Below are positions 41,918 to 64,000 of a stretch of 64,000 nt of DNA, in pieces (the stretch's first letter is position 1; each line of letters starts with the position of its first letter). The translations under genes were made by a program, and so were the position numbers. The DNA comes from Loripinus fragilis (lineage: Eukaryota > Mollusca > Bivalvia > Lucinida > Lucinidae). The notes under the pieces were generated by a model that had not been told where the DNA came from, made no database searches, and was given only the letters and a program-made list of their open reading frames with translations. The stretch spans positions 24,132,130-24,196,129 of the forward strand of contig OZ026520.1 in the NCBI GenBank assembly GCA_964019695.1, given 5' to 3'.

Positions 41918-44900
41918 CAAGAGGGCTCTATGGCCCTGGGTCGCTCACCTGAGTAGATGATGTATTGGCCTGTGGCTAAGGATATATGATATGATTTAGA
42001 AGATATTTCTTTTTTTAGCTTTGGTAGCCATGTTGTTCAGCCAAGCTGAACCTTCTGATCAATTTTAGTAGAGGGCAAAATGAGGACCATTTCTGTGAAA
42101 TCATTTTGATTTTGGACCAGTTCATTTGAAGATATTTCTTATCTAGAGCTCTGCCAACCCCTTTTTGGCAGATCAAAACTATTTGTGAAATTTTGGTAGA
42201 GCGCATCCTGAGAACCATTTCTGTAAAATTATTTTAAATTTGGACCAGTGGTTCAGGAGAAGACGTCATTTAAAGACATTTCTCATCTACAGCTCTGCCG
42301 TCCCTGTATTAAGCCTAGTAAAACTGTTTGTGCACTTTTGGTAGAAGCCATCATGAGGAACAATTCTGTGAAATAATTTTGAATTTGAACAAGTGGTTCA
42401 GGAGGAAATGTCACTAAAACACATTTCCTACACAGAGCTCTGGCAGCCCTTTCGTTCAGTGGAGTGGAACCATTTGTGCAATTTTGGTAGAGGGTATTAT
42501 GAGAAACAATTCTGTGAAATTATTTTGAATTTGGACCAGTGGTTCAGGAGGAGATGTCTTTTCACGATATTTCTTATCTGGAGCTCTGGCGGCCCTTTTG
42601 TTCAGCGAAGCGGAACCATATGTGCAATTTTCATAGAAGGTATTATGAGAAACAATTTGAATTTGGACCAGTGGTTCAGGAGGAGATGCCTTTTAAAGAT
42701 ATTTGTTACCTGGAGCTCTGGCGGCCCTTTTATTCAGCGGAGCAGAACCACTTGTGGAATTTTGGTAGAGTGTATCAACATGAACTTTCTTAGCAATTAT
42801 TTTTAATTTGTAACAGTGGTTCAAGAGGAGATGTCTTTTAAGGTTAATTTTATCTGGAGCTCTGCCAGCCCTTTTGTTCAGCAAAGTGGAACCATTTGTG
42901 CAGTTTTGGTAGAGGGCATTATGAAGAGCAATTCTGTGAATTCATTTTAAATTTGGGCCAGTGGTTAACAAGGAGATGTTGTTTAAAATATTTCTTACCT
43001 GGAGCTCTGGTGGCTTTCGTGTTCAGTGGAGCAGAACTATTTATGCAATTTTGAAAGAGGGCATCATGGGGATCATTCATGTGAAGTTATATGAAAGGAG
43101 TTCTAGGGATAAGGCATATATTTTCCCTAGTTGACATGATTACAAAACCTAAATTTTGAAATTGCCCTAATGTTTTTAAAATTGGTCTGTTCCGGTAGTA
43201 AAATTTACATAGAAAGCATCAAAATAGGTTTCAAAGCGATTCATTGTTTACAAAACCGTTAAAACTTGCGCCTTCTACTCCCACCCCTCATTTTACGTCT
43301 TTAGACTGGGTGCCGTTTAGACGAGAGTTTTAGTAAATCCTTTGCAGGTTTTCAAAAAGTAAAAGTGCTAAAATATTAAGGATATAAGTACCCTTCATTT
43401 TCGAAACTTTGCGTTTTTCTTCTGCGCATGCGTACGAAATATACTTAAAATTGTGACGTTTGTCATTGAAAAGATGAAACTGGCGTCTTTCAGTTTGTTT
43501 TTAGATGCTTTGCCCCCCTAGACCCAAGATGCCCTTTGGACAATTAAATGTCGCTATACAAATACATAACATATGTAAAGGGCGTCTTGGGTCTAGGGGG
43601 CAAAGGGGTTGTATAAGCGAAAGAAGACATCAAATATCTGACAAAAAATAGACCACTTTGCAAGAAGGTCGTTTTTATTGTACATCAACTGTATAAATAG
43701 TTTTACTGTACATAGCGTGATAGGACGATTGGTTCCCTTGTTTAACGGTCTAGTTCCCATATATGTTACTGAATAACAAGTACAGTTGATGATCGAAATA
43801 AATTCCCATTCAATAAGAAGTAGAGTTATTACATGCACTAAGGTAATCCCGTTTTAAATATACAAATTCGGGGGCAATGGTGCATCGACGGCCCGTCTAT
43901 ATATATTTGTTTAATGTGCCTAGTTTCTCCAGTCGTCATTTCAACAAAATGAAACGAACGTCTCGTTTAGGGAGATTGCTCGCCTTAACGCTAGAAATTC
44001 TTTTGACCAGTGGTTCAGGAGATGTCGTTTAAAGATGTTTCTTATCTGGAGCTCTGGCGGCCCTTTTGTTCACTGTTGTGCAATTTTAGTAAAGGGCATT
44101 ATAGTGTAGGCCCCTGTGTAATTCCGTGTGCATTTTTTGGTAAAAGTGTCAAACATACATTTTCTTGTAGAAAAATGTATCCTGTTTAAGAAAAAAGATG
44201 TTTACAATTTTTCTTTTGAGTTTTAACGTCACAATGACGTCACAAAGTGACGTACCCATTTTTAGCTAATTTAAGGCTTGAAAGTGGAGTGTTCTAAATT
44301 CCAGCAGGCATAAACATGAACTGTTTGATCAAATGTGGGAATTTTATTGGTGACATGTTTATTTCAGAGCAAAGACCCTGACTCTGGATTTAAAAGAGGT
44401 AACATTTACTTCAAAATGATGTCTGTACATGGAAAAGTGACGTCAGTACTAAAATGAAAATTATGCGATAGTGAAAGCTCAAATAGCTAGACCCTCCTCC
44501 CCACACAGCAGGGAAAATACTGTTCACTATAATTTACTAAAACTACATTATATAAAATGCAAAATGGCATACGTTAGCTCTCTGACCTATATTTAGACAG
44601 GCATGTTAACTACGTTACCCTATTATAGTTTCAAATCCTATTTTGCAAATACCAAGTTAAACCTAATTATTATTTATCAACATGCTGTTTGCCTTAAAAC
44701 ATTTAAAAGGAAAGAAACAACCAGTATGCATTTTAACAATACACCACTATGATGTTACAGTTATATATGTTACTTTAAATGTATAACTATTAATGCAATA
44801 CTGTCACTAGACATTGGACTACCAAAATACCTCATAGGGAGTTTTGTACACTATAATTTTCTTAGACCACAATCTACATGCCACACAATAATGTATGTTA

Positions 44901-47900: not shown

Positions 47901-50167
47901 CATGGATAATTAGTAGGAACTTAATACAAATTGATACATCCTTTTTGCAGACAGACTGGTATCTTGATATCTATTTTAACAAGCACAGTCAGTTTTGGGA
48001 TGAAATAAAATACCCTATGACGTATAATAATTAATATACGGAATAAATCAATGTATATAATGTCTTGAAAGTTATAATATACGTTACATGATGCCGTACA
48101 AACAAAAACAAAACTAATATTTACACCAGAAACGAAGTTAGGCATAGCTTTTTTCTCTTGCTTATCAACAGAATGCTCATATATGGTGTTTAAAGGTTTT
48201 AAAATTGAATTTCATGCTGAATTAAAGAATAAACTTTTTGTTCAGGGTCATTATATTTAACAATTCATAACTCTTAAAGTATTTGTGATGCGAACAAACT
48301 GTTAGCAGCTATATAATGTTCCAATAATAGTCTTTTGGAAGATGTATTTAAAATCTGTAAGTTAACTGGGAAGCTTATCAATGAAAATCATTTAACAGAA
48401 TATCAGTGATTTTAAATAGATTAGCTTAAAATGTAACATAAATGACATTCATTGGACACATATAACTTCTATAAACATAAATATATGTAAGGAATGAAAT
48501 GTTATTGTATATTACATAAATGTTTGTCCAATTTAAATAATTCAAGTATTACCTTAACAACCTTGATTACATTTATTTGTTTAAAAAAAATAGAGGGTAA
48601 CGTAGTTAACACGCTGTAGCAGCTTAACGCCCCATCCATCAGAGAGCTAACTTGTTTCAAAAAGCTTAGCCAGGAACATACACTTATGCTAAGATCTGAT
48701 TTTAGTCACAAGGCACACACGAATTTCCAGAATTTTCTTTTTGTACGCAATGTGTTTTTTCTAGCTTATTGACGTCGAATTGACGTCAATTTCACGTAAA
48801 AATGAAATTCATATTGAATCAAATTTTCAGTCTAGTGTTTCTATAGACGTTTTGAACCATTTCAATGCAACAAACATAAAAATAAGATTGTTTTAGGTTT
48901 GTAAATAACCCCACCACAAATAAGCTCCTTGATGCAAGTTAAAAGATGGTACCCCATTGTGTGACGTCACTGTGACGTTAATACTGCAAGAAAAAATTGT
49001 AAACATCTTTTTCCTTGCACTGCATATATTTCTCTAGTTGAAAATCGATAAGAATCACTTTTACCAAAAAGTGCACACGGGAGCCCAAATTTCGACACAG
49101 GGGCCTACACTATTATGAGGAACAATTCTGTAAAACTATTTTGAATTTAGACCAGTGGTTAAGGAGGAGATGCCTTTTAAATATATTTCTTATCTGGAGC
49201 TCTGGCGGCCCTTATGTTCAGCTGAGCAGAACCATTTGTGCAGTTTTTGGTAAAGGGTATCAAGAGGAACAATTCTGTGAAATTATTTTGAACTTGGACC
49301 AGTGGTTCAGGAGGGGATGTCTTTTAAATATATTTCTTATCTAGAGCTCTTGCAGCCCCTTTGTTCAGCGGAGCAGAACCATTTATGCTGATAAGGCAAT
49401 TTTGGTAGAGGGCATTATGAGGAACAATTCTATGAATTTATTTCAAATTTGGGCCAGTGGTTCAGGAAATGTCATTTAAGAGATTTCTTATCTAGAGCTC
49501 TGGCGGCCCTCGTGGTCAGTGGAGTGGAACCATTTATGCAATTTTGAAAGAGGGCTCCTTTGGGAACATTCATGTGAAGTTATTTTCAATTTGGACCAGT
49601 GGTTCAGGAGGAGATGCCTTTTAACGATATTTCTTATCAGGAGCTCTGGTGGCCCTTTTTTCAGCAGAGCAGAACCATTTGTGCAATTTTGGTAGAGTCT
49701 ATCAAAAGGAACAATTTTGTAAAATTATTTTGAATTTGGAATTGTGGTTCAAGACGAGATGTCTTTTAAAGATATTTTTTATCTGGAGCTCTGGTGGACC
49801 TTTTGTTCAGTGGAGCAGAACTATTTGTGCAATTTTGGTAGAGGGCATTATGAGGAACAATTCCATGGATTTATTTCGAATTTGGGCCATTTGGTCAGGA
49901 GAAGATGTTGTTTAAAAGATTTCTTATCTGGAGCTCTGGCGGCCCTCGTGTTCATTGGAGCGGAACCATTTATGCAATTTTAAAAGAGGGCATCATGGGG
50001 AACATTCATGTGAAGTTATATGAAATTTGGGTCAATGGGTCAGATGTTGTTTAAAGAAAAGTTTACGAACGACGGACACACGCTGGACGCCTGACACCGG
50101 ACGCCAGACGCCGGACGAAGAGTGATCACAATACCCTACCTTGAGCCTTCGGCTCAGGTGAGCTAAA
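41918..50167. repeat. Large dispersed repeat with about 150-bp internal tandem units, split by insertions
   Basis: Begins 'agggctctatggccctgggt cgctcacctgag' and ends 'ccttgagccttcggctcagg tgagcta'. Between these, a unit of about 150 bp (ttggaccagtggttcagga, 'cttatctggagctctggcgg', 'gcagaaccatttgtgcaatt', 'gagggcattatgaggaacaa') repeats about 13 times. Two insertions split it: an unrelated segment at about 43094-43990, with a hairpin around 43515-43610, and the 5-kb element at 44103-49111. The frames of 60-137 codons here are repeat by-products. Confidence 0.75.
44103..49111. mobile_element. 5009-bp noncoding element with long TIRs, AG...CT ends, ATTAT duplication
   Basis: The left end reads AGTGTAGGCCCCTGTGT and the right end is its complement. 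Both arms stay alignable for at least 170 bp (TTTTTGGTAAAAGTG, AAAAGATGTTTACAATTTTT, AACGTCAC.GTGACGTCAC). ATTAT lies directly outside both ends (44098-44102 and 49112-49116). Sister units of the host repeat show the empty site (gggcattatgaggaac near 49845), confirming the borders. The longest frame is 79 codons. Subterminal inverted copies of a GGGGCGTTA...TGTTAACTACGTTACC motif (44571-44617 and 48595-48655) link it to the element at 13792-18756. AG...CT termini with long TIRs recall Polintons, but the size is far smaller, no polymerase or integrase is present, and the duplication is 5 rather than 6 bp. Confidence 0.8.
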
Positions 50168-50579: not shown

Positions 50580-52062
50580 GACTGAATGAACCTGTACCCC
50601 CTCCCTCCCTCTTCAGTTGCGTTTATTGAAGTATATACGGTAACATACACCTTCATCCTTCATTTTCTTCTCTAAGACTACCAGGAATCCTTTCTATTGA
50701 ATGAACCTAAACCACATCCCTCCCATTTCAGATGCGTTTAGTGAAGTAAACACGGTAATTTACACCTTCATCCTTAATTTTCTTCCCTATATCTTCCAGG
50801 AATCCTTTCTCTTGCATGAACCTAAAGACCCTCCCTCCCTTCAGTTGCGTTTATTGAATAAAACACGGTAACCTACACCTTCATCCTTCATTTTCTTCCC
50901 TAAGACTTCCAGGAATCCTTTCTTGTGAATGGCCCTAAACCCCTCCCTCCCCTTTCAGTTGCGTTTATTGAAGTAAAAACGGTAACCTTCACCCTCATCC
51001 TTCATTTTCTTCCCTAACACTTCCAAGAATCCTTTCTCTTCAATGAACCTAAAGACCCTCCCTCCCTTCAGTTGCGTTTATTGAATAAAACACGGTAACC
51101 TACACCTTCATCCTTCATTTTCTTCCCTAGGACTTCCAGGAATCCTTTCTTGTGAATGGCCCTAAACCCCTCCCTCCCCTTTCAGTTGCGTTTATTGAAG
51201 TAAAAACGGTAACCTTCACTCTCATCCTTCATTTTCTTCCCTAACACTTCCAAGAATCCTTTCTCTTCAATGAACCTAAAGACCCTCCCTCCCTTCAGTT
51301 GCGTTTATTGAATAAAACACGGTAACCTACACCTTCATCCTTCATTTTCTTCCCTAGGACTTCCAGGAATCCTTTCTTGTGAATGGCCCTAAACCCCTCC
51401 CTCCCCTTTCAGTTGCGTTTATTGAAGTAAAAACGGTAACCTTCACCCTCATCCTTCATTTTCTTCCCTAACACTTCCAAGAATCCTTTCTCTTCAATGA
51501 ACCTAAAGACCCTCCCTCCCTTCAGTTGCGTTTATTGAATAAAACACGGTAACCTACACCTTCATCCTTCATTTTCTTCCCTAGGACTTCCAGGAATCTT
51601 TTCTCTTGAATGAACCTAAACCCTTCTCTCCCCTTCAAGTGACGTTTATTGAAGTAAACACGGTAACCTACACCTTCATCCTTGATTTTCTTCCCTAGGA
51701 CTTCCAGGAATTTTTTCTCTTGAATGAACCTAAACCCTTCTCTCCCCTTCAAGTGACGTTTATTGAAGTAAACACGGTAACCTATACCTTCATCCTTGAT
51801 TTTCTTCCCTAAGACTTACAGGAATCCTTTCTCTTGCATGAACCTCAACCCTCCCTTCCCTTCCAGGGGCGTTTATTGAAGTAAAAACGGTAACCTTCAC
51901 CCTCATCCTTCATTTTCTTCCCTAACACTTCCAAGAATCCTTTCTCTTCAATGAACCTAAAGACCCTCCCTCCCTTCAGTTGCGTTTATTGAATAAAACA
52001 CGGTAACCTACACCTTCATCCTTCATTTTCTTCCCTAAGACTTCCAGGAATCCTTTCTCTTT
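50580..52062 (-). repeat. About 115-bp tandem array derived from a coding exon end, 13 copies
   Basis: Each unit carries, on the - strand, a sequence reading KGFLEVLGKKMKDEGVGYRV followed by FNKRN and usually a stop, plus a short purine-rich spacer (agggagggaggg). The first full unit is the real end of the exon at 51976-52121. Between about 50820 and 51590 a two-unit block of about 231 bp is itself repeated with almost no change, a higher-order repeat. Two neighbouring units near 51522-51752 stay in one frame without a stop, with a 38-residue period. Confidence 0.85.
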
Positions 52063-55909: not shown

Positions 55910-57030
55910 TTTCAACCAGCATGATCTGTTCACTGAGGTGTATCATAACAACAGACTGTATACATGCCATTGTAAATGAGTATTAAGCTACAGGATTGCG
56001 CAAAATTGGTGACTAATGAGTTTTTATAATAATTTCTTTTGGGGCATTTTGACATCATTCCCCCCTTTGATCAAGCATTCCGTTTTATATGATGTGTGTA
56101 ATCATGGTAATATAAAACTACAACTGTATGCAAAAGGATCAGCTTGATCAATGGGGGAAAGCACCACCAAAACTTTTTTTCTATTTCCTATATTAAATAG
56201 CAGCACAGAGTTTTAAATCGGTACTTGTCCAATGTGAAAATACTTTTTGCGGATAATTCAAGGGGTTAACCAAGTACCTTTTCCACAGAAAAAATATCAT
56301 TTTCTTTGAAACTTTTATCTGGCTATTTTATGGACAATTCTTCATTAAGACTGTTCGGGTCCTTTTAACCTGAACCTCCATCTGAGTCCCTACAATGTGT
56401 GTCTGTGGGAGGTGATGGTGGGTTGGTGTATGCGCGCGCACAGCGGAGGCTCTAACGAGACTGTGCAGGTCTCATCATTTTTTAAAAAGAAATTCAGGCC
56501 ATCTTGGCCATTAGTATATTGTTACTTATAGTGTAGATGAAAAGTTATTGCCACTGACACTGTCTTTGGTGCATGATAGTAACCGACGGATAGAACCCTT
56601 GCCAAAGATACATTGTTGCAATTGGTGCCCCAACACCTGGATCAATGAATTTTTGTCAGAGTATGTCCAGGTCCAACTGACAGAAAATGTTCTGACAATA
56701 ATTATTTTAGTCTTCAACTTACTTAACAGAGGTAGTCCAGTGTTTTATTTCAAAGGAAAACTATAATTTTCCAAGCTTCTTAGGGGGTCTAACACTTTCG
56801 AGTGGGGGGGGGGGAGGCATCTTTTCCCCAGGGGTTAAATTGCTAATTCCAATGTAAACCTACAGAGCTTCGGGACCCCATGAGCAACACCCCTACCCCT
56901 CTGGATCCGCGTGAATGTGCAATTAATCCGTCGGTATATAATAGTTGGAAAAACAGTTGTCATTAATGTGCAAAGGCAATGGAATCTAGGTACTTACGAC
57001 CAGCTATGAATGAGTGTCTCTCGGGAACGT
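55910..57030. other. No gene recognised
   Basis: Short frames at 56526-56766 on both strands lack content. 56763-56912 ends in 'ccctctggatccgcg', resembling the right end of the GCGGATCCAGA MITEs. Confidence 0.4.
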
Positions 57031-57031
57031 G

Positions 57032-58222
57032 TAACAGAATAACATAGTGCTCTGGCTTGTGTATGTGCTGCATGTACCCTGAAATAACAAGTATAACATA
57101 GTGCTCTGGCTTGTGAATGTGCTGCATGTACCCTGAAATTACAAGTATAACATAGTGCTCTGGCTTGTGAACGTGCTGCATGTACCCTGAAATTACAAGA
57201 ATAACAAAGTGCTCTTGTTTGTGAATGTGCTGCATGTACCCTGAAATAACAAGTATAACATAGTGCTCTGGCTTGTGAATGTGCTGCATGTACCCTGAAA
57301 TAACAAGTATAACATAGTGTTCTGGCTTGTGTATGTGCTGCATGTACCCTGAAATAACAAGAATTGCATAGTGCTCTGTCTTGTGAATGCGCTGAATGTG
57401 CCCTGAAATAACAAGAATAACATAGTGTTCAGGCTTGTGTATGTGCTGCATGTACCCTGAAATAACAAGAAAAACATAGTGTTCTGGCTTGTGAATGTGC
57501 TGCATGTACCCTGAAATAACAAGAATAGCATAGTGCTCTGGTTTGTGAATGTGCTGAATGTGTCCTGAAATAACAAGGAAAGGATAGTGCCCTGGTTTGT
57601 GATTGTGCTGCATGTACCCTGAAATAACAAGAAAAGCATAGTGCTCTGGTTTGCGAATGCGCTGCATGTGCCCTGAAATAACAAGAATAGCATAGTGCTC
57701 TGGTTTGTGAATGCGTTGCATGTGCCCTGAAATAACAAGGATAACATTGTGCTCTGTCTTGTGAATGTTTTGTATAGACCCTGAAATAAAAGAATAAGAC
57801 AGTGCTTTGGCTTGTGAATGTGCTGCATGTGCCCTGAAATAACAAGGATAACATTGTGCTCTGTCTTGTGAATGTGTTGTATAGACCCTGAAATAAAAGA
57901 ATAAGACAGTGCTTTGGCTTGTGAATGTGCTGCATGTACCCTTCAATAACAGAATAACACAGTGCTCTGGTTTGAAAATGCGTTGCATGTACCCTCAAAT
58001 GACAAGAATAACATAGTGCTCCATTTTGTGAATGCGCTGCATGTACCCTGAAATAACAAGAATAACATAGTGCTCTGGTTTGTGAATGTGCTGCATGTGC
58101 CCTTGAATAATAAGAATAACATAGTGCTCTGGTTTGTGAATGCGCTGCATATGTCCTGAAATAACAAGAATGGCATAGTGCTCTGGTTTGTGAATGCGCT
58201 GCATGTGCCCTGAAATAACAAG
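57032..58222. repeat. 54-bp minisatellite, left block (about 22 copies)
   Basis: The unit is 54 bp: ccctgaaataacaagaataa, catagtgctctggtttgtga, atgtgctgcatgta. Because 54 is divisible by three and the unit has few stops on the - strand, all three - frames stay open over long stretches (for example a repeated QHIHKPEHYVILVISGYM). The array is not judged to be coding. A variant pair (tgttgtatagaccctgaaa, 'aagacagtgctttggcttg') forms a higher-order repeat near 57735-57950. Confidence 0.92.
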
Positions 58223-59770
58223 ATACAAGATACAATTATTTATTAGAAAATCCATAAAGGATATCAGAAATACAATAGAGTAAAGACAATGAACAAGAAA
58301 GAGAAAAAAGAATGAAAAACTAATATGCAAGACTAGATTAGTCTTGTGATCCATTGGAGACAACCAAATTCCTTTTTATCAATATATATTATAATTATTC
58401 TAAGATGCATGAAGGGCAAATATGTAGCCTAACAGTCAGCAAAGCAGTAAAAGCAAAATCATCAATTCCTAAGGGAAAAACATATTGTGACAAAACTAGC
58501 AATATCTTTAAATACAGATTCGTCTTCATTACTCAAAAGCCATTGGAATTTAGACATATAAGACTGAGATGCAAAATTTGTATTGTTGTTTAAATGATTA
58601 GTGTTCTTAATTCTATGATAAGCATACTTTGGACAACCCAACAAAAAATGACTCTCGTCTTCAACTGCATTCATTACACATTGTTTGCAAAGCCTCTCTG
58701 CAATAGGAGTTTTTGGGGTAGTATATCTACCATACTCAATAAGTAATTTATGACAGCTGGTTCTAAAACGAGCCAAATTGCTGCGATCTGAATCATTGGA
58801 AACATGTGTTAGATACTTTTCAAACATGAATATTGATTTAATTTTCTGTATGTTCTCAACTTTTCACTTTTATGCAGCTCTACAGACCAGTATTTAACAA
58901 ATTTTGACTGCAATGACTTTTTGAGATCAGTTAAGTGCCGTCTTGTCATAGCTTGAGGATTATTGAAAAATCTTAAGAGGTTACAGTCTTTCAATATCAT
59001 GTATACACAGCTTAACCAACAGTCTTTCTTATTTTGAAACATGACGTGATTATCCTGCAATGCATCTTTTATTAATCTATTAGATTCAGCATCTTTATTA
59101 ATGTACAGCCAGTACTTAATAATGGCCAATACTGTATCTATATACAAATGATACCGGCCGAGCTCACCGTATGTTGCAATATTAGACGTCCTCTTGCCAA
59201 CTCCTAGTACATATTTACACATATGAATGTTCATTTTTTCTAAGGGTGAACTAACGTACATATCATGCAATGTTTTCTCCTTCGACTTACATAACTTATT
59301 ACTATAAAAGAACCCGACCACTTCGGTACCGTACATTAAAACAGGCTTCACTGTATGGTCAAACACGAAAAGAAATTGCTCAGCACTGCATTTAGCATGT
59401 TTAAACAAACTTGTTAGCTTAAAAAAGGCTTTTTGACCCCTGTGATACAAGTCATTTAAAGCTTTTGTAAATGAGCCATTTAAGCTAAAGATAATACCCA
59501 AATATTTGTATTCTCTGACACATTCTAATGCAATGTTGTTTATGGTAAAAGGGAAAACAAAAAATTTACTTGATTTACTGAAAACCATGACTTTTGATTT
59601 ATTATAATTTATATCGAGACCCCATGTAGAGCAAAATTTACCGACAACATTAAGACAATTCTGTAGACCCGATGCTGACTCTGATAAAATAATAAGATCA
59701 TCGGCATATAATAAGCAGTTAATTCTGTGTTCGCCTAGTAAAACTGGCATGCATGTTTCATCAAAACATT
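58223..59770 (-). mobile_element. 5'-truncated non-LTR retrotransposon in the minisatellite, TSD TAACAAG
   Basis: The 1548-bp insertion interrupts the 54-bp array. TAACAAG is present at both borders (58216-58222 and 59771-59777). Reading on the - strand, it begins inside the reverse transcriptase gene, as expected for a 5'-truncated copy. It ends with two TTGTATC repeats, the kind of short tandem tail seen in CR1-like and related LINEs rather than a poly-A tail. The array phase continues across the site. Confidence 0.88.
58462..59770 (-). pseudogene. LINE reverse transcriptase C-terminal half, frameshifted
   Basis: The frame from 59770 to 58809 contains the catalytic core motif CLLYADDLIILSES (YADD at 59697-59708), then WGLDINYNKSKVMVFS (the following reverse transcriptase block) and YKYLGIIFSLNGSF, the thumb-region signature of non-LTR elements. 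The coding then shifts by one base near 58827 and continues to 58462 with a zinc-knuckle-like CKQC...ESHFLLGC (C-x2-C-x9-H-x4-C), typical of the C-terminus of CR1/Jockey-type ORF2 proteins. The endonuclease and fingers are missing because of the 5' truncation, so the copy is dead. Confidence 0.88.
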
Positions 59771-60378
59771 TAACAAGAATGACATATTGCTCTGGTTTGT
59801 GAATGCGCTGCATGTACCCTGAAATAACAAGAATAACATAGTGCTCTGGTTTGTGAATGTGTTGCATGTGCCCTGAAATAACAAGTATAACATAGTGCTC
59901 TGGTTTGTGAATGTGTTGCATGTGCCGTGAAATTACAAGGGTAACATAGTGCTCTGTCTTGTGAATGTGTTGTATAGACCCTGAAATAAAAGAATAAGAC
60001 AGTGCTTTGGCTTGCGAATGTGCTGCATGTACCCTGCAATAATAAAATAACATAGTGCTCTGGTTTGTGAATGTGCTGCATGAACCCTGAAATTACAAGG
60101 GTAACATAGTGCTCTGTCTTGTGAATGTGTTGTATAGACCCTAAAATAAAAGAATAAGACAGTGCTTTGGCTTGCGAATGTGCTGCATGTACCCTGCAAT
60201 AATAAAATAACATAGTGCTCTGGTTTGTGAATGTGCTGCATGTACCCTGAAATTACAAGAATAACATATTGCTCTGGCTTGTCAATGTGCTGCATGTACC
60301 TTGAAATACCACGAATAGCAAAGTGCTCTGGTTTGTGAATGCGCTGCATGTACCCTGAAATAACAAGAATAACATAAT
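59771..60378. repeat. 54-bp minisatellite, right block (about 11 copies)
   Basis: Same unit as the left block, with the higher-order variant pair repeated at about 59938-60045 and 60098-60205. The block ends after 'ataacaagaataacataa'. Confidence 0.92.
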
Positions 60379-60985
60379 AAAAATCAGTGTTATTTGAGAT
60401 TAGAATACATACGTGCAAACTTATTCCCATATGAGAGTGTTAAGAAATTCTGACAATGCAGATCATATGCTGACAAATGAAGGCTTCTTGAAATCATTTT
60501 TCTCACATCATCATTCGTGGTACATATCTGAGACACATATATAATCCTAGGAAAGTATCATGCTGTGCACTGAACTACCATAGTTACTCTTTGCATACTA
60601 CGTGCTAGTTACGTAAGAGACAGTATCATATGCACTGGTTGGGTGGGAATAGTACATGTGACCCCATGTCTCGATCTGTATAGCGAACGAATCATCGTAA
60701 GTTTCAGATAGTTTATTTTTGTGATTTAAAATTATTTATCATGAGAATTTCAACTTCATACCAGTAGTTTGGGAAGCATATAACGGTCTTTTCGATGCAT
60801 TACGCGGTTCTTCTGTTTATCACTGTGTTTTGTTTTATTTTAACATTTATTCTTAAAAAATCATTTGTAACATGTATGATGTTTATCTGTTTAATATGTT
60901 GTTTACTAAGTTTCTGTTGACCCAGATGTTGGAGATATTGATGGTAAACAAGTTGTTGTAAACAAAATGTTCATTTTGATCAGGA
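60379..60985. other. Spacer between minisatellite and heat-shock promoter
   Basis: No repeat or coding frame recognised. Confidence 0.4.
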
Positions 60986-61210
60986 GATTTTTCTAGAAGG
61001 ATGACTAATCATCTAGAAATTGAAAATGTATTGTCATGGAAGTTTCCAGAAAAGTATGGAATTCCCTAGAACTTTCTTTTTATACCAAATGGAAGCTCTG
61101 AGCAGGTTCTAGAATTATCCAGGAGAATTAAGAAAGTTGTGGAAATTTCCAGAATGTTTTATATTTACCATATGATATCATAGTTGTTTCCTAATTGTTC
61201 TGGAATTTTC
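60986..61210 (+). promoter_or_regulatory. Heat-shock element cluster
   Basis: Heat-shock factor trimers bind inverted nGAAn pentamers. Three perfect three-part elements are present: GAAgtTTCcaGAA (61039-61051), GAAatTTCcaGAA (61142-61154) and TTCtgGAAttTTC (61198-61210). The first extends in strict 5-bp phase to 61076, with six of eight pentamers intact (61039, 61044, 61049, 61059, 61069, 61074). The second is preceded in phase by GAA at 61132. Further two-part sites are TTCtaGAA at 60991-60998 and 61107-61114. The nearest element ends 8 bp before the TATA box, the arrangement of classic hsp promoters. Confidence 0.8.
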
Positions 61211-61218
61211 TTAAAGAG

Positions 61219-61230
61219 TATATATAAGGG
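61219..61230 (+). promoter_or_regulatory. TATA box of the heat-shock promoter
   Basis: TATATATAAGGG lies directly downstream of the proximal heat-shock element. Transcription would be expected to start near 61250, to the right. Confidence 0.7.
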
Positions 61231-61249
61231 TAAATTGGCATTAAGGCAT

Positions 61250-63540
61250 CTATGAAATAATTTCACATGATCATGTGATAACATAAGTTCCAGTAGACAG
61301 TAGAATATGTGATATAACCTAAGATCTAGTAGGCCTAAAGAACAGTTTCATAAGTCACAACCTAAGTTCCAGTAAACAGGTAAACAACAGTCATATGTGA
61401 CATATGTGACAACTTATTATAGTTCCATAAATGGTAGAATCATATTCGAAAGCCTATCAATAGTTTCAGAAATGCCAGAAGCATGTGTGATAACCTATAA
61501 ATAGTTCCTGAAATGAGAGAATCATATGTGATAACCTATTATAGTTCCAGTAATGACAGAATCATATGTGTTAACCTATTATAGTTCCAGAAATGAGAGA
61601 ATCATATGTGATAACCTATTATAGTTCCAGTAATGACAGAATCATATGTGATAACCTATCATAGTTCTAGAAATGAGAGAATCATATGTGATAACCTATA
61701 AATAGTTCCAGAAATGACAGAATCATATGTGATAACCTATAAATAGTTCCAGAAATGACAGACTCATATGTGATAACCTATTATAGTTCCAGAAATGACA
61801 TAATCATATGTGTTAACCTATCATAGTTCTAGAAATGAGAGAATCATATGTGATAACATACTTTAGTTCTAGAAATGCCAGAATCATATATGATAACCTA
61901 TAATAGTTCTAGAAACGACAAAATCATATGTGATAACCTTTTATAGTTCTAGAAACGACAGACTCATATGTGATACTCTTTTATAGTTCCAGAAATGCTA
62001 GAATCATATGTGATACTCTATTTGAGGTCCAGAAATGCTGGAAACATATGTGATAAACCTATTAAAGTTCCAGAAATAAAAAAATCATATGTGTTAACCT
62101 ATTATAGTTCCAACAACGACAAAATCGATGTTTACTAATTATAGGTCTAGAAACGAGAGAATCATAGGTGATAACCTATTATAGTTCTACAAATATCAGA
62201 ATCATATGTATCAACCTATTATAGTTCTAGAAATTAGTCAAATGACATCTAATCATATGTGTTAACCTGTTATAAGTTCTAGAAATGACAGAATCATATG
62301 TGTTAACCTATTATAGTTCCAGAAATAACATAATCATATGTGATAACCTATTATAGTTCCAACAACGACAAAATCATATGTGTTAGCCTATTATAGTTCT
62401 AGAAACGACCGAATCATATGTGACAATCCATTATAGTTCTAGAAATGAGAGAATCATAGGTGATAACATATTCTAGTTCCAGAAATGACAGAATCATATG
62501 TGATAACCTTCTATAGTTCCAGAAATGCTAGCATCATATGTGATAACCTATTATAGTTCCTGAAACAACAGAATCATATGTGATAACCTATTATAGTTCC
62601 AGAAATAACAGAGTCATATGTGATAACCTATTATAGTTCCAGAAATCAAAGAATCATATGTGATAACCTATTATAGTTCCAGAAATAAAAGAATCATATG
62701 TGATAACCTATTATAGTTCCTGAAATAACAGAATCATATATGATAACCTATTATAGTTCCAGAAATAAAAGAATCATATGTGATACCCTATTATAGTTCC
62801 TGAAATGACAGAATCATATGTGATAACATATCATAGTTTCAGAAATGCTAGAATCATATATGTGATAACCTATTATCGTATGTGTTTACCTATTATAGGT
62901 CTAGAAATGCAAGAATTATATGTGTTAACCGATTATTGTTCTAGAAACGAGAGAATCAAATATGATAGCCTATTATAGTTCTAGATGTGACAGAATCATA
63001 TGTGTTATACTGTTATAGTTCTAGAAATTAGTCTAATGACAGAATCATATGTGTTATACTGTTATAGTTCTAGAAATGACAGAATCTAATGTGTTAACCT
63101 ATTATAGTTCTAGAAATGACAGAATCATATGTGATAACATATTATAGCTCTAGAAATGCCAGAATCATATGTGTAAACCTATAAGAGTTCCAGAAACTAC
63201 AAAATCATATGTGATAACCTATTATAGTTCAAGAAATGACAGAATCATATGTGATAACCTATTATAGTTCTAGAAACGACAGAATCATATGTATTAACCT
63301 ATTAGAGTTCTAGAAACCACAGAATCATATGTGTTAACCTATTAGAGTTCTAGACACAACAAAATCATACGGTTCAACTTCACCTATTATAGTTCTAGAA
63401 ACGACAGAATCATATGTGATAACCTACCGGTATTATAGTTCCAGAAACTCCAAATCATGTGTGCTAACCTATTTTCAGTCCAAGCAACGCAAGAATTATT
63501 TGTGATAACCCATTACAGTTCCAGAAACGCCAGCGTCTGG
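61250..63540 (+). ncRNA. Candidate heat-inducible satellite RNA
   Basis: Predicted only from context: a strong heat-shock promoter points into this region, which has no open frame of 60 codons or more on either strand and is almost entirely 40-bp tandem repeat. Stress-induced, repeat-rich noncoding RNAs driven by heat-shock factor are known (Drosophila hsr-omega, human satellite III). Alternatively this is the first intron of a protein gene beyond the window; a possible donor CAG|gtaaac lies at about 61380. The 3' end is unknown. Confidence 0.4.
61268..63535 (+). repeat. 40-bp minisatellite, about 56 copies, most with TTCnnGAA
   Basis: The unit is about 40 bp: tgataacctattatagttcc joined to agaaatgacagaatcatatg. 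Most copies contain TTCCAGAA or TTCTAGAA, a two-pentamer heat-shock half-element, spaced about 40 bp apart. The first copies (61268-61440) are degenerate. The best-preserved block is 61480-62860. A few copies carry a 'ttagtcaaatgac'-type insertion (62233, 63030). Confidence 0.9.
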
Positions 63541-64000
63541 AACATAGACTATTTAAGTATTAGGATAAAATTAAATGATATATGTGCTAATTGACTCAAC
63601 AGCTCTAGCTGGTGCAAAACACTGGATCCACGCTAACATGGCTAATTTTATTAGAAGAGGGGGATGGGTTTCATAGACAAATAAGAATTTATATTAAAAA
63701 ATGATTTTAGAGGGCATGTGCCAAAGGAAAAGCAACCAGAATTAATAATTTATGACCATGACATGTAGAATTTATTGTGGAAAAGTGACATTTACTTGTG
63801 TGATAAGAAAGTGGCGCTAATTGCAAATCAAATGTCAGCTTAAATTTCGCTCATTTTCTGATTTTGGTCGTTCAATCTTTTATTAAAGAGACATGGTTTG
63901 TAGATGCGATACAGTCTACCAAGTTTAGAATAAATACGACCAAAAAAATTACATGCCAGGTATGTTTTGATAACAAACACAAAACGAAAGTAAGCAGGTA
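63541..64000. other. No feature recognised
   Basis: AT-rich sequence after the array. No exon of a downstream gene was identified. Confidence 0.4.

What the first reader, a model, noticed from the sequence alone, without database searches (positions are those of the whole stretch)
60986..63540. Heat-shock promoter pointing directly into a 40-bp satellite array
Three perfect three-part heat-shock elements (61039, 61142, 61198), one extended over eight phased pentamers, and a TATA box 8 bp after the last one make a textbook stress promoter. The predicted start (about 61250) is within about 20 bp of the first units of a 2.3-kb array of about 56 repeats, with no open frame. Seen: motifs, spacing, array. 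Known: hsr-omega in flies and satellite III in humans are heat-shock-factor-driven repeat RNAs that organise nuclear stress bodies. Inferred: this may be an independently evolved molluscan counterpart.
Basis: partly seen in the sequence, partly recalled or inferred. Interest (0 to 1): 0.88.

Follow-up and report, generated by a model that had tools for sequence, protein, structure and literature searches.

The report
Heat-shock retrotransposon promoter beside a satellite
The "stress promoter" is a broken end piece of a jumping gene that occurs in many places in this genome and carries heat-shock switches, and it lies next to a simple repeat array apparently by chance, so the interesting thing is the possibly heat-activated jumping gene and not a new stress RNA.

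Summary
In detail: three perfect heat-shock elements (HSEs), a TATA box and a 40-bp array of about 57 units. The reading changes. The "promoter" (60865-61266) is the 5' part of a ~740-775-bp long terminal repeat (LTR) of a dispersed Ty3/Gypsy-type retrotransposon (39 other places among 40 scored of 1,308 candidates). The fragment ends ~15 bp after the predicted start, where the array begins. That junction has no second match in the genome; the array was found only here at >=75% identity. Its units do not resemble the LTR beyond chance, and their HSE-like core is not specially conserved. A satellite-III or hsr-omega counterpart is not supported.

The LTR family stands out. Perfect HSEs lie upstream of the TATA box in 14 of 14 LTRs of seven young copies found with an HSE-free query and in 18 of 20 older copies (query-biased). 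HSE cores change less than the rest. The seven copies have LTR pairs differing by at most one substitution, and exact 4-bp target duplications. This looks like an ONSEN-like, very recently mobile element. Heat induction is inferred, not shown.

The parts
60865..61266 (+). 5' part (U3 plus about 15 bp of R) of a 3'-truncated LTR of an HSE-bearing Ty3/Gypsy-type retrotransposon family
   Evidence: other scored copies are 82-91% identical; starts TGTAACATGTATGATG like full LTRs; no convincing match to the missing 3' part in the window or to window coordinate 68000
60991..60998 (+). two-part HSE TTCTAGAA in U3
   Evidence: also in the younger group
61039..61076 (+). perfect three-part HSE (61039-61051) inside a phased 8-pentamer block, 6 of 8 pentamers perfect
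61107..61114 (+). two-part HSE TTCTAGAA in U3
61142..61154 (+). perfect three-part HSE
   Evidence: a perfect HSE at the aligned place in the younger group
61198..61210 (+). perfect three-part HSE nearest the TATA box
   Evidence: a perfect HSE at the aligned place in the younger group
61219..61228 (+). TATA box TATATATAAG
   Evidence: exact in 12 of 14 young LTRs, variants in several older copies
61245..61255 (+). predicted transcription start (inferred from TATA distance only)
   Evidence: Inference; no RNA data
61266..61267 (.). junction between truncated LTR and array edge; single match in the genome
61267..63545 (+). 40-bp minisatellite, about 57 units; 36 of 51 segmented units hold an exact TTCnnGAA dyad; found only here at >=75% identity
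62075..62769 (+). AATAAA hexamers inside the array at 62075, 62684 and 62764 (possible premature polyadenylation)

Best explanation
The block at 60865-61266 is the U3 promoter, with the first ~15 bp of R, of an LTR from a multicopy Ty3/Gypsy-type retrotransposon. Shown: the family's ~740-775-bp LTR starts TGTAAC and ends GTAACA, leaves 4-bp target duplications, carries clusters of HSEs upstream of a TATA box, has an AATAAA near its 3' end, and in one older copy flanks gag/pol remnants. Shown: young two-LTR copies with identical or nearly identical LTRs carry the HSEs too. Inferred: host HSF trimers bind the HSEs in heat or proteotoxic stress and switch on the element's transcription, so that it copies itself under stress, as ONSEN does in Arabidopsis. 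In the window one older LTR has lost its 3' half and lies against the edge of an unrelated 40-bp minisatellite. Heat shock might still start a chimeric read-through RNA there, but as a by-product and not an evolved architectural RNA.
For: Dispersed repeat: 40 scored of 1,308 candidates, the window itself and 39 others at 82-91%; R/U5 query without HSE, 40 scored of 1,396. LTR anatomy. Coding remnants in L011, pieces searched apart: Integrase_H2C2 1.1e-16, RVT_1 1.9e-9, Integrase_p58_C 1.4e-9; zf-CCHC 0.013, below its cut-off; the RT piece matches solved Ty3, retroviral and other viral RTs, first hit 4ol8. Young copies: 7 of 7 pairs have identical 4-bp duplications; LTR pairs identical in 3 of 7, one substitution each in 4 of 7 (two of these also with 1-2 gap columns) (the lower figures took in a few bases outside the LTR). 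HSEs: 14 of 14 young LTRs hold 2-3 perfect three-part HSEs, all upstream of the TATA box; 43 in 20 older U3 regions versus 0.095 expected from mononucleotide shuffles, 18 of 20 copies with at least one. Constraint: 24 non-CpG core columns diverge 0.031 versus 0.084 in 281 other columns, Mann-Whitney P 3e-4; between older and younger groups 44 of 45 positions in HSEs of two or more parts are the same versus 277 of 327 ungapped others, Fisher P 0.008. HSF domains. Single junction.
Against: No RNA, HSF-binding or heat experiment is available, so induction is inferred. The 20 older copies were found with a query that contains the HSEs, so their HSE count is biased upwards; 2 of 20 (L022, L027) have no perfect three-part HSE. 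Only 40 of 1,308 and 40 of 1,396 candidates were scored, so copy number is not measured. With three-part HSEs alone the between-group test is 26 of 27 versus 295 of 345, P 0.09 without gap columns (0.015 with them). The spacer divergence (0.168) is inflated by CpG-capable sites. The tests do not use a tree. The first three-part HSE of the older group is not perfect in the majority string of the younger group. L041 and L042 lack the exact TATATATAAG.
Confidence: 0.8

Rival explanations
1. An evolved stress RNA locus: HSF drives transcription of the 40-bp array and the RNA organises nuclear stress bodies, as satellite III or hsr-omega RNA does.
For: Intact-looking HSE/TATA promoter ending about 15 bp before the array; array of about 57 units found at one locus.
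Against: The promoter is a mobile LTR fragment; the junction has one match; array HSE-dyad columns are not specially conserved (rank 9 of 40 shifts); AATAAA inside the array; 9 arrays of 500 bp or more in this one window.
Confidence: 0.05
2. The array itself is an HSF platform or sink: most units carry TTCYAGAA, as satellite III repeats are thought to recruit HSF1, and transcription is secondary.
For: 37 alternating two-part sites in the array versus 48 in the rest of the window; 36 of 51 segmented units have one. A review passage notes putative HSEs over satellite III stretches (PMC9032817).
Against: In the consensus unit the site has two parts and no third phased pentamer; no excess conservation; the consensus unit of the related 40-bp array on C359 lacks the GAA half.
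Confidence: 0.07
3. A host heat-shock gene promoter, with the array as an intron of an HSP gene beyond 64000.
For: HSE/TATA layout typical of HSP genes (recalled).
Against: The block is a dispersed LTR. The longest + strand frame from 61 to 78 kb has 133 codons. I gave Pfam 10 of the 25 + strand frames of 60 codons or more that start beyond 64000; none matched a chaperone, only weak hits below their cut-offs. Short exons, and DNA beyond 78 kb, were not tested; the HSP70 genome search did not complete.
Confidence: 0.02
4. The HSEs in the LTR are historical or serve another factor; the family is not heat-induced.
For: No expression data; some older copies have lost perfect HSEs; the between-group test on three-part HSEs alone is weak (P 0.09).
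Against: HSE core columns vary less within the older group (P 3e-4); all 14 young LTRs keep 2-3 perfect sites close to the TATA box.
Confidence: 0.15

Closest known systems
ONSEN (ATCOPIA78), Arabidopsis (PMC3907296, passages seen)
   Same: LTR with nTTCnnGAAn heat-response elements and few or no CpG; works by borrowing the host heat-shock factor
   Different: ONSEN is Ty1/Copia in a plant with shown HSFA2 binding and heat induction; here Ty3/Gypsy-type, with HSEs in several clusters, and no experiment
DIRS-1, Dictyostelium (passage and reference titles in PMC2685390)
   Same: Retroelement with a heat-shock promoter in its terminal repeats
   Different: Inverted terminal repeats; here direct LTRs, integrase remnants and 4-bp target duplications
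TCN3 / TCN12, Cryptococcus (passages in PMC12810828)
   Same: Putative HSEs in retrotransposon LTRs
   Different: Fungal, one or two putative sites; mobility at 37 C was measured there and nothing was measured here
HSE-bearing Helitrons of Caenorhabditis (PMC6927752, start of abstract and passages)
   Same: Animal mobile elements that spread HSEs through a genome
   Different: DNA transposons, not LTR promoters
Gmr1-like Ty3/Gypsy elements (passages in PMC8220671 and PMC3587641)
   Different: No tree was built; the order was seen in one degenerate copy
Human satellite III / Drosophila hsr-omega RNAs (PMC9032817 passages)
   Same: HSF-type promoter or sites beside tandem repeats
   Different: Those are transcribed on heat shock and gather in nuclear structures; here an LTR fragment abuts a minisatellite found at one locus

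Membership tests
LTR retrotransposon (Ty3/Gypsy) | Direct LTRs flanking an interior, with a short target-site duplication | tested here: met
   L011 and 7 of 7 young pairs, 4-bp duplications; the window copy itself is only a truncated LTR
LTR retrotransposon (Ty3/Gypsy) | LTR begins TG, ends CA, with TATA box and polyadenylation signal | tested here: met
   (TGTAAC...GTAACA, TATATATAAG, AATAAA)
LTR retrotransposon (Ty3/Gypsy) | gag/pol with RT and integrase of Ty3 type | tested here: met
   on broken pieces of L011 searched apart; interiors of the young copies were not fetched
Gmr1-like clade | Integrase upstream of reverse transcriptase | tested here: met
   Frame order in L011, one copy only
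Gmr1-like clade | Groups with Gmr1 elements in a tree | not tested
   No tree was built
Heat-activated LTR retrotransposon (ONSEN-like) | HSEs in U3 of young copies | tested here: met
   14 of 14 young LTRs
Heat-activated LTR retrotransposon (ONSEN-like) | HSF binding and heat-induced transcription | not testable with these tools
   No expression or binding data
Satellite III / hsr-omega type stress RNA | Heat-induced nuclear repeat RNA forming bodies | not testable with these tools
   No RNA data
Satellite III / hsr-omega type stress RNA | Constraint on the repeat unit's HSF-binding core, or recurrence of the promoter-array pair (my own yardstick) | tested here: not met

The most novel reading that the evidence does not exclude
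This genome hosts a still-mobile animal LTR retrotransposon that has captured the heat-shock response: its U3 holds several HSE clusters in a CpG-poor LTR, it jumps under heat stress, and it may have seeded hundreds to over a thousand HSE/TATA promoters, some of which (as at 61250) now drive heat-induced read-through RNAs of neighbouring DNA, including this array.
Probability: 0.35. Interest if true: 0.75.

Novelty: new variant of a known kind. Interest (0 to 1): 0.5.

Why it matters
Heat-shock-element LTR promoters are shown for a plant element (ONSEN), a heat-shock promoter is reported for a Dictyostelium element, and sites are proposed in fungi. For animals, my searches (listings, and passages of some papers) listed Caenorhabditis Helitrons, and I saw no animal LTR family with conserved HSEs. 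Heat-induced retrotransposition in Drosophila is reported, however (reference title in PMC9032817), and one paper states that heat-driven activation through host machinery is known in plants and animals. A recently mobile element of this kind would link heat waves to new insertions and would spread ready-made heat-shock promoters, which heat-stress RNA-seq could test directly. It is also a warning that a textbook promoter pointing at a repeat can be one mobile-element end beside an unrelated minisatellite.

Tried and rejected
Array derived from the LTR: not supported, unit-versus-LTR Smith-Waterman score 21, reached by 28.8% of 500 shuffles. Array as an expansion inside an intact LTR: not supported, no convincing match to the remaining 3' LTR part in the window or in L009 (best E 0.004, 71 bp at 2477, with permissive scoring). 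Array recurring beside the LTR: at 67-73% the array matches a 40-bp array on C359 and places on C6, C12, C7 and C8 (all 21 candidates scored, but the tool skips very common words). Of these I fetched three short stretches (C359, C6, C12). None has a convincing LTR copy (best E 0.001 over 37 bp). The C6 and C12 stretches hold 36-bp arrays with shared flanks, so they sit in another dispersed element. Selection on the array's HSE dyad: an alignment anchored on the motif suggested it; the unanchored wraparound alignment did not. Downstream HSP gene: nothing in the frames tested to window coordinate 78000. Rfam: 0 matches in the window. Not obtained because the genome search did not complete: a genome-wide count of the HSE-plus-TATA motif, an HSP70 location search, and searches with the two flanks (60380-60980, 63530-64000). 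One search failed on a file name and was redone.

Dropped or corrected counts: L017 and L018 (5' part not homologous) were left out of 20 older copies, leaving 18, and one LTR of each of 7 young pairs was used. In one search, CpG-capable columns (38 of 360) were left out of the main comparison. LTR-pair identities (99.5-99.7%) took in about three bases outside the LTR and were recomputed (99.86-100%). The between-group test counted gap columns as differences; without them P rises from 0.0003 to 0.008 (two or more parts) and from 0.015 to 0.09 (three-part only). The assembly size (1.99 Gb) and large contigs numbered up to C19 resemble the 1.86 Gb, 19-chromosome Mercenaria assembly in PMC8905726 (passages), but that is no proof.

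Full report
What was checked. The phased block has 6 of 8 perfect pentamers. The array has about 57 units of 40 bp and no + strand frame longer than 64 codons.

What the promoter is. A genome search with 60980-61260 scored 40 of 1,308 candidates: the window itself and 39 others at 82-91%. Twenty 10-kb loci (the window copy and 19 of the others) were compared. Homology to the window copy runs over at most 60865-61266, with L016, L017, L018 and some others starting later. Past the junction, 17 of the 19 others go on in common sequence (L016 and L020 do not), while the window switches to the array. Full copies are about 775 bp, start TGTAACATGTATGATG, end CACGTAACA and have AATAAA near the 3' end. 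Among the older copies, exact 4-bp target duplications can be read in L011, L014 (a T run), L023, L027 and L028; L015, L022, L024 and L025 do not match exactly; the others lack an end or, in L013, run into the interior. L011 has two LTRs (85.7% identical) flanking broken gag/pol pieces: integrase H2C2, integrase C-terminal, RT, and a CCHC match below its cut-off. The RT piece matches solved Ty3, retroviral and other viral enzymes. The integrase pieces lie upstream of RT, the order reported for Gmr1-like Gypsy elements (passages).

Recent activity. A search with part of the R/U5 half of L023, which lies outside the HSE region, scored 40 of 1,396 candidates; among the 40 are seven same-strand pairs 5.95-5.97 kb apart. 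I fetched those 14 LTRs. With exact boundaries, the two LTRs are identical in 3 of 7 pairs and differ by one substitution in 4 of 7 (two of these also by 1-2 gap columns), and 7 of 7 show identical 4-bp duplications: ACTG, ACGC, TATT, ATAA, CCAC, ATAT, AATG. The window fragment is 80-81% identical to them, so it belongs to an older group.

HSEs are a family trait. Young sample, not chosen by HSE: 14 of 14 LTRs carry 2 (10 LTRs) or 3 (4 LTRs) perfect three-part HSEs, all upstream of the TATA box. Older sample, chosen with a query that contains the HSEs: 43 in 20 regions, 18 of 20 copies with at least one, 0.095 expected from mononucleotide shuffles. Within the older group, non-CpG core columns diverge 0.031 versus 0.084 elsewhere (P 3e-4). 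Between groups, 44 of 45 positions in sites of two or more parts are the same versus 277 of 327 other ungapped positions (P 0.008); for three-part sites alone, 26 of 27 versus 295 of 345 (P 0.09). The tests ignore the tree. The young LTRs hold 3 CpG each in 13 of 14 and 4 in one; the window fragment holds none in 402 bp, while the window's CpG observed/expected is 0.65. This resembles ONSEN's CG-free LTR (passage), but loss through methylation is not excluded. The genome encodes HSF DNA-binding domains (3 matches).

What the array is. At 75% identity or more it was found only here, the junction pattern has one match, and its unit is no more like the LTR than shuffles are. Of 51 segmented units 36 carry an exact TTCnnGAA, but those columns are not specially conserved (0.911 versus 0.868, rank 9 of 40 shifts). 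Nine arrays of 500 bp or more lie in this one window, and among the 20 LTR loci L011 also has an array abutting its LTR. Chance neighbours are therefore expected.

Mechanism. Shown: LTR identity, HSE and TATA layout, lower variation of HSE cores, very young copies. Inferred: HSF binding, heat-induced transcription and mobility. For the window locus, a heat-induced chimeric RNA of about 15 nt of R plus array is possible, with AATAAA hexamers from 62075 on as possible ends; I found no sign that it has been selected.

Comparison with print. Searches for HSE with LTR and bivalve or mollusc words found no paper; broader ones (37, 54, 56, 57, 86) listed papers on ONSEN, Caenorhabditis Helitrons and Cryptococcus TCN elements, which I saw as listings and passages only. 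Most subscription papers are not in that library, so novelty in print is provisional.

Noticed in passing
window 56963-60430 (-): A 54-bp minisatellite (18 codons per unit) keeps long frames open; frame 58809-60053 runs from these repeats into a reverse transcriptase domain (RVT_1 5e-12).
   Followed up: partly
window 42125-43090 and 49115-50030: Two arrays of a similar 145-bp unit about 6 kb apart, the second followed by a 113/227-bp array at 50583-52061.
   Followed up: no
window 33313-33482: 21-bp repeat whose unit CAGCCTGGTTACGGTCAGCCA would read QPGYGQP if coding.
   Followed up: no
window 48725-48737: A lone perfect three-part HSE outside the LTR fragment; about one is expected by chance.
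   Followed up: no
L011 98-2883 and after 9395 (oriented): A two-LTR copy of the family lies next to or within a 48-bp tandem array, with CTTT at both ends.
   Followed up: partly
L030, L031: 36-bp arrays with unit GTCCCTGTCGATTCCAGAAATAAAGAATCACCTGTG lie in a dispersed element sharing flanks at about 96%; the unit also holds TTCCAGAA.
   Followed up: partly
L019 3502-3658 (oriented): The last ~157 bp of this LTR copy are inverted relative to the others.
   Followed up: no
window coordinates 64554-64802 (L009 6554-6802): Another ~250-bp dispersed repeat, whole or in part in L012, L014, L016 and L021.
   Followed up: no
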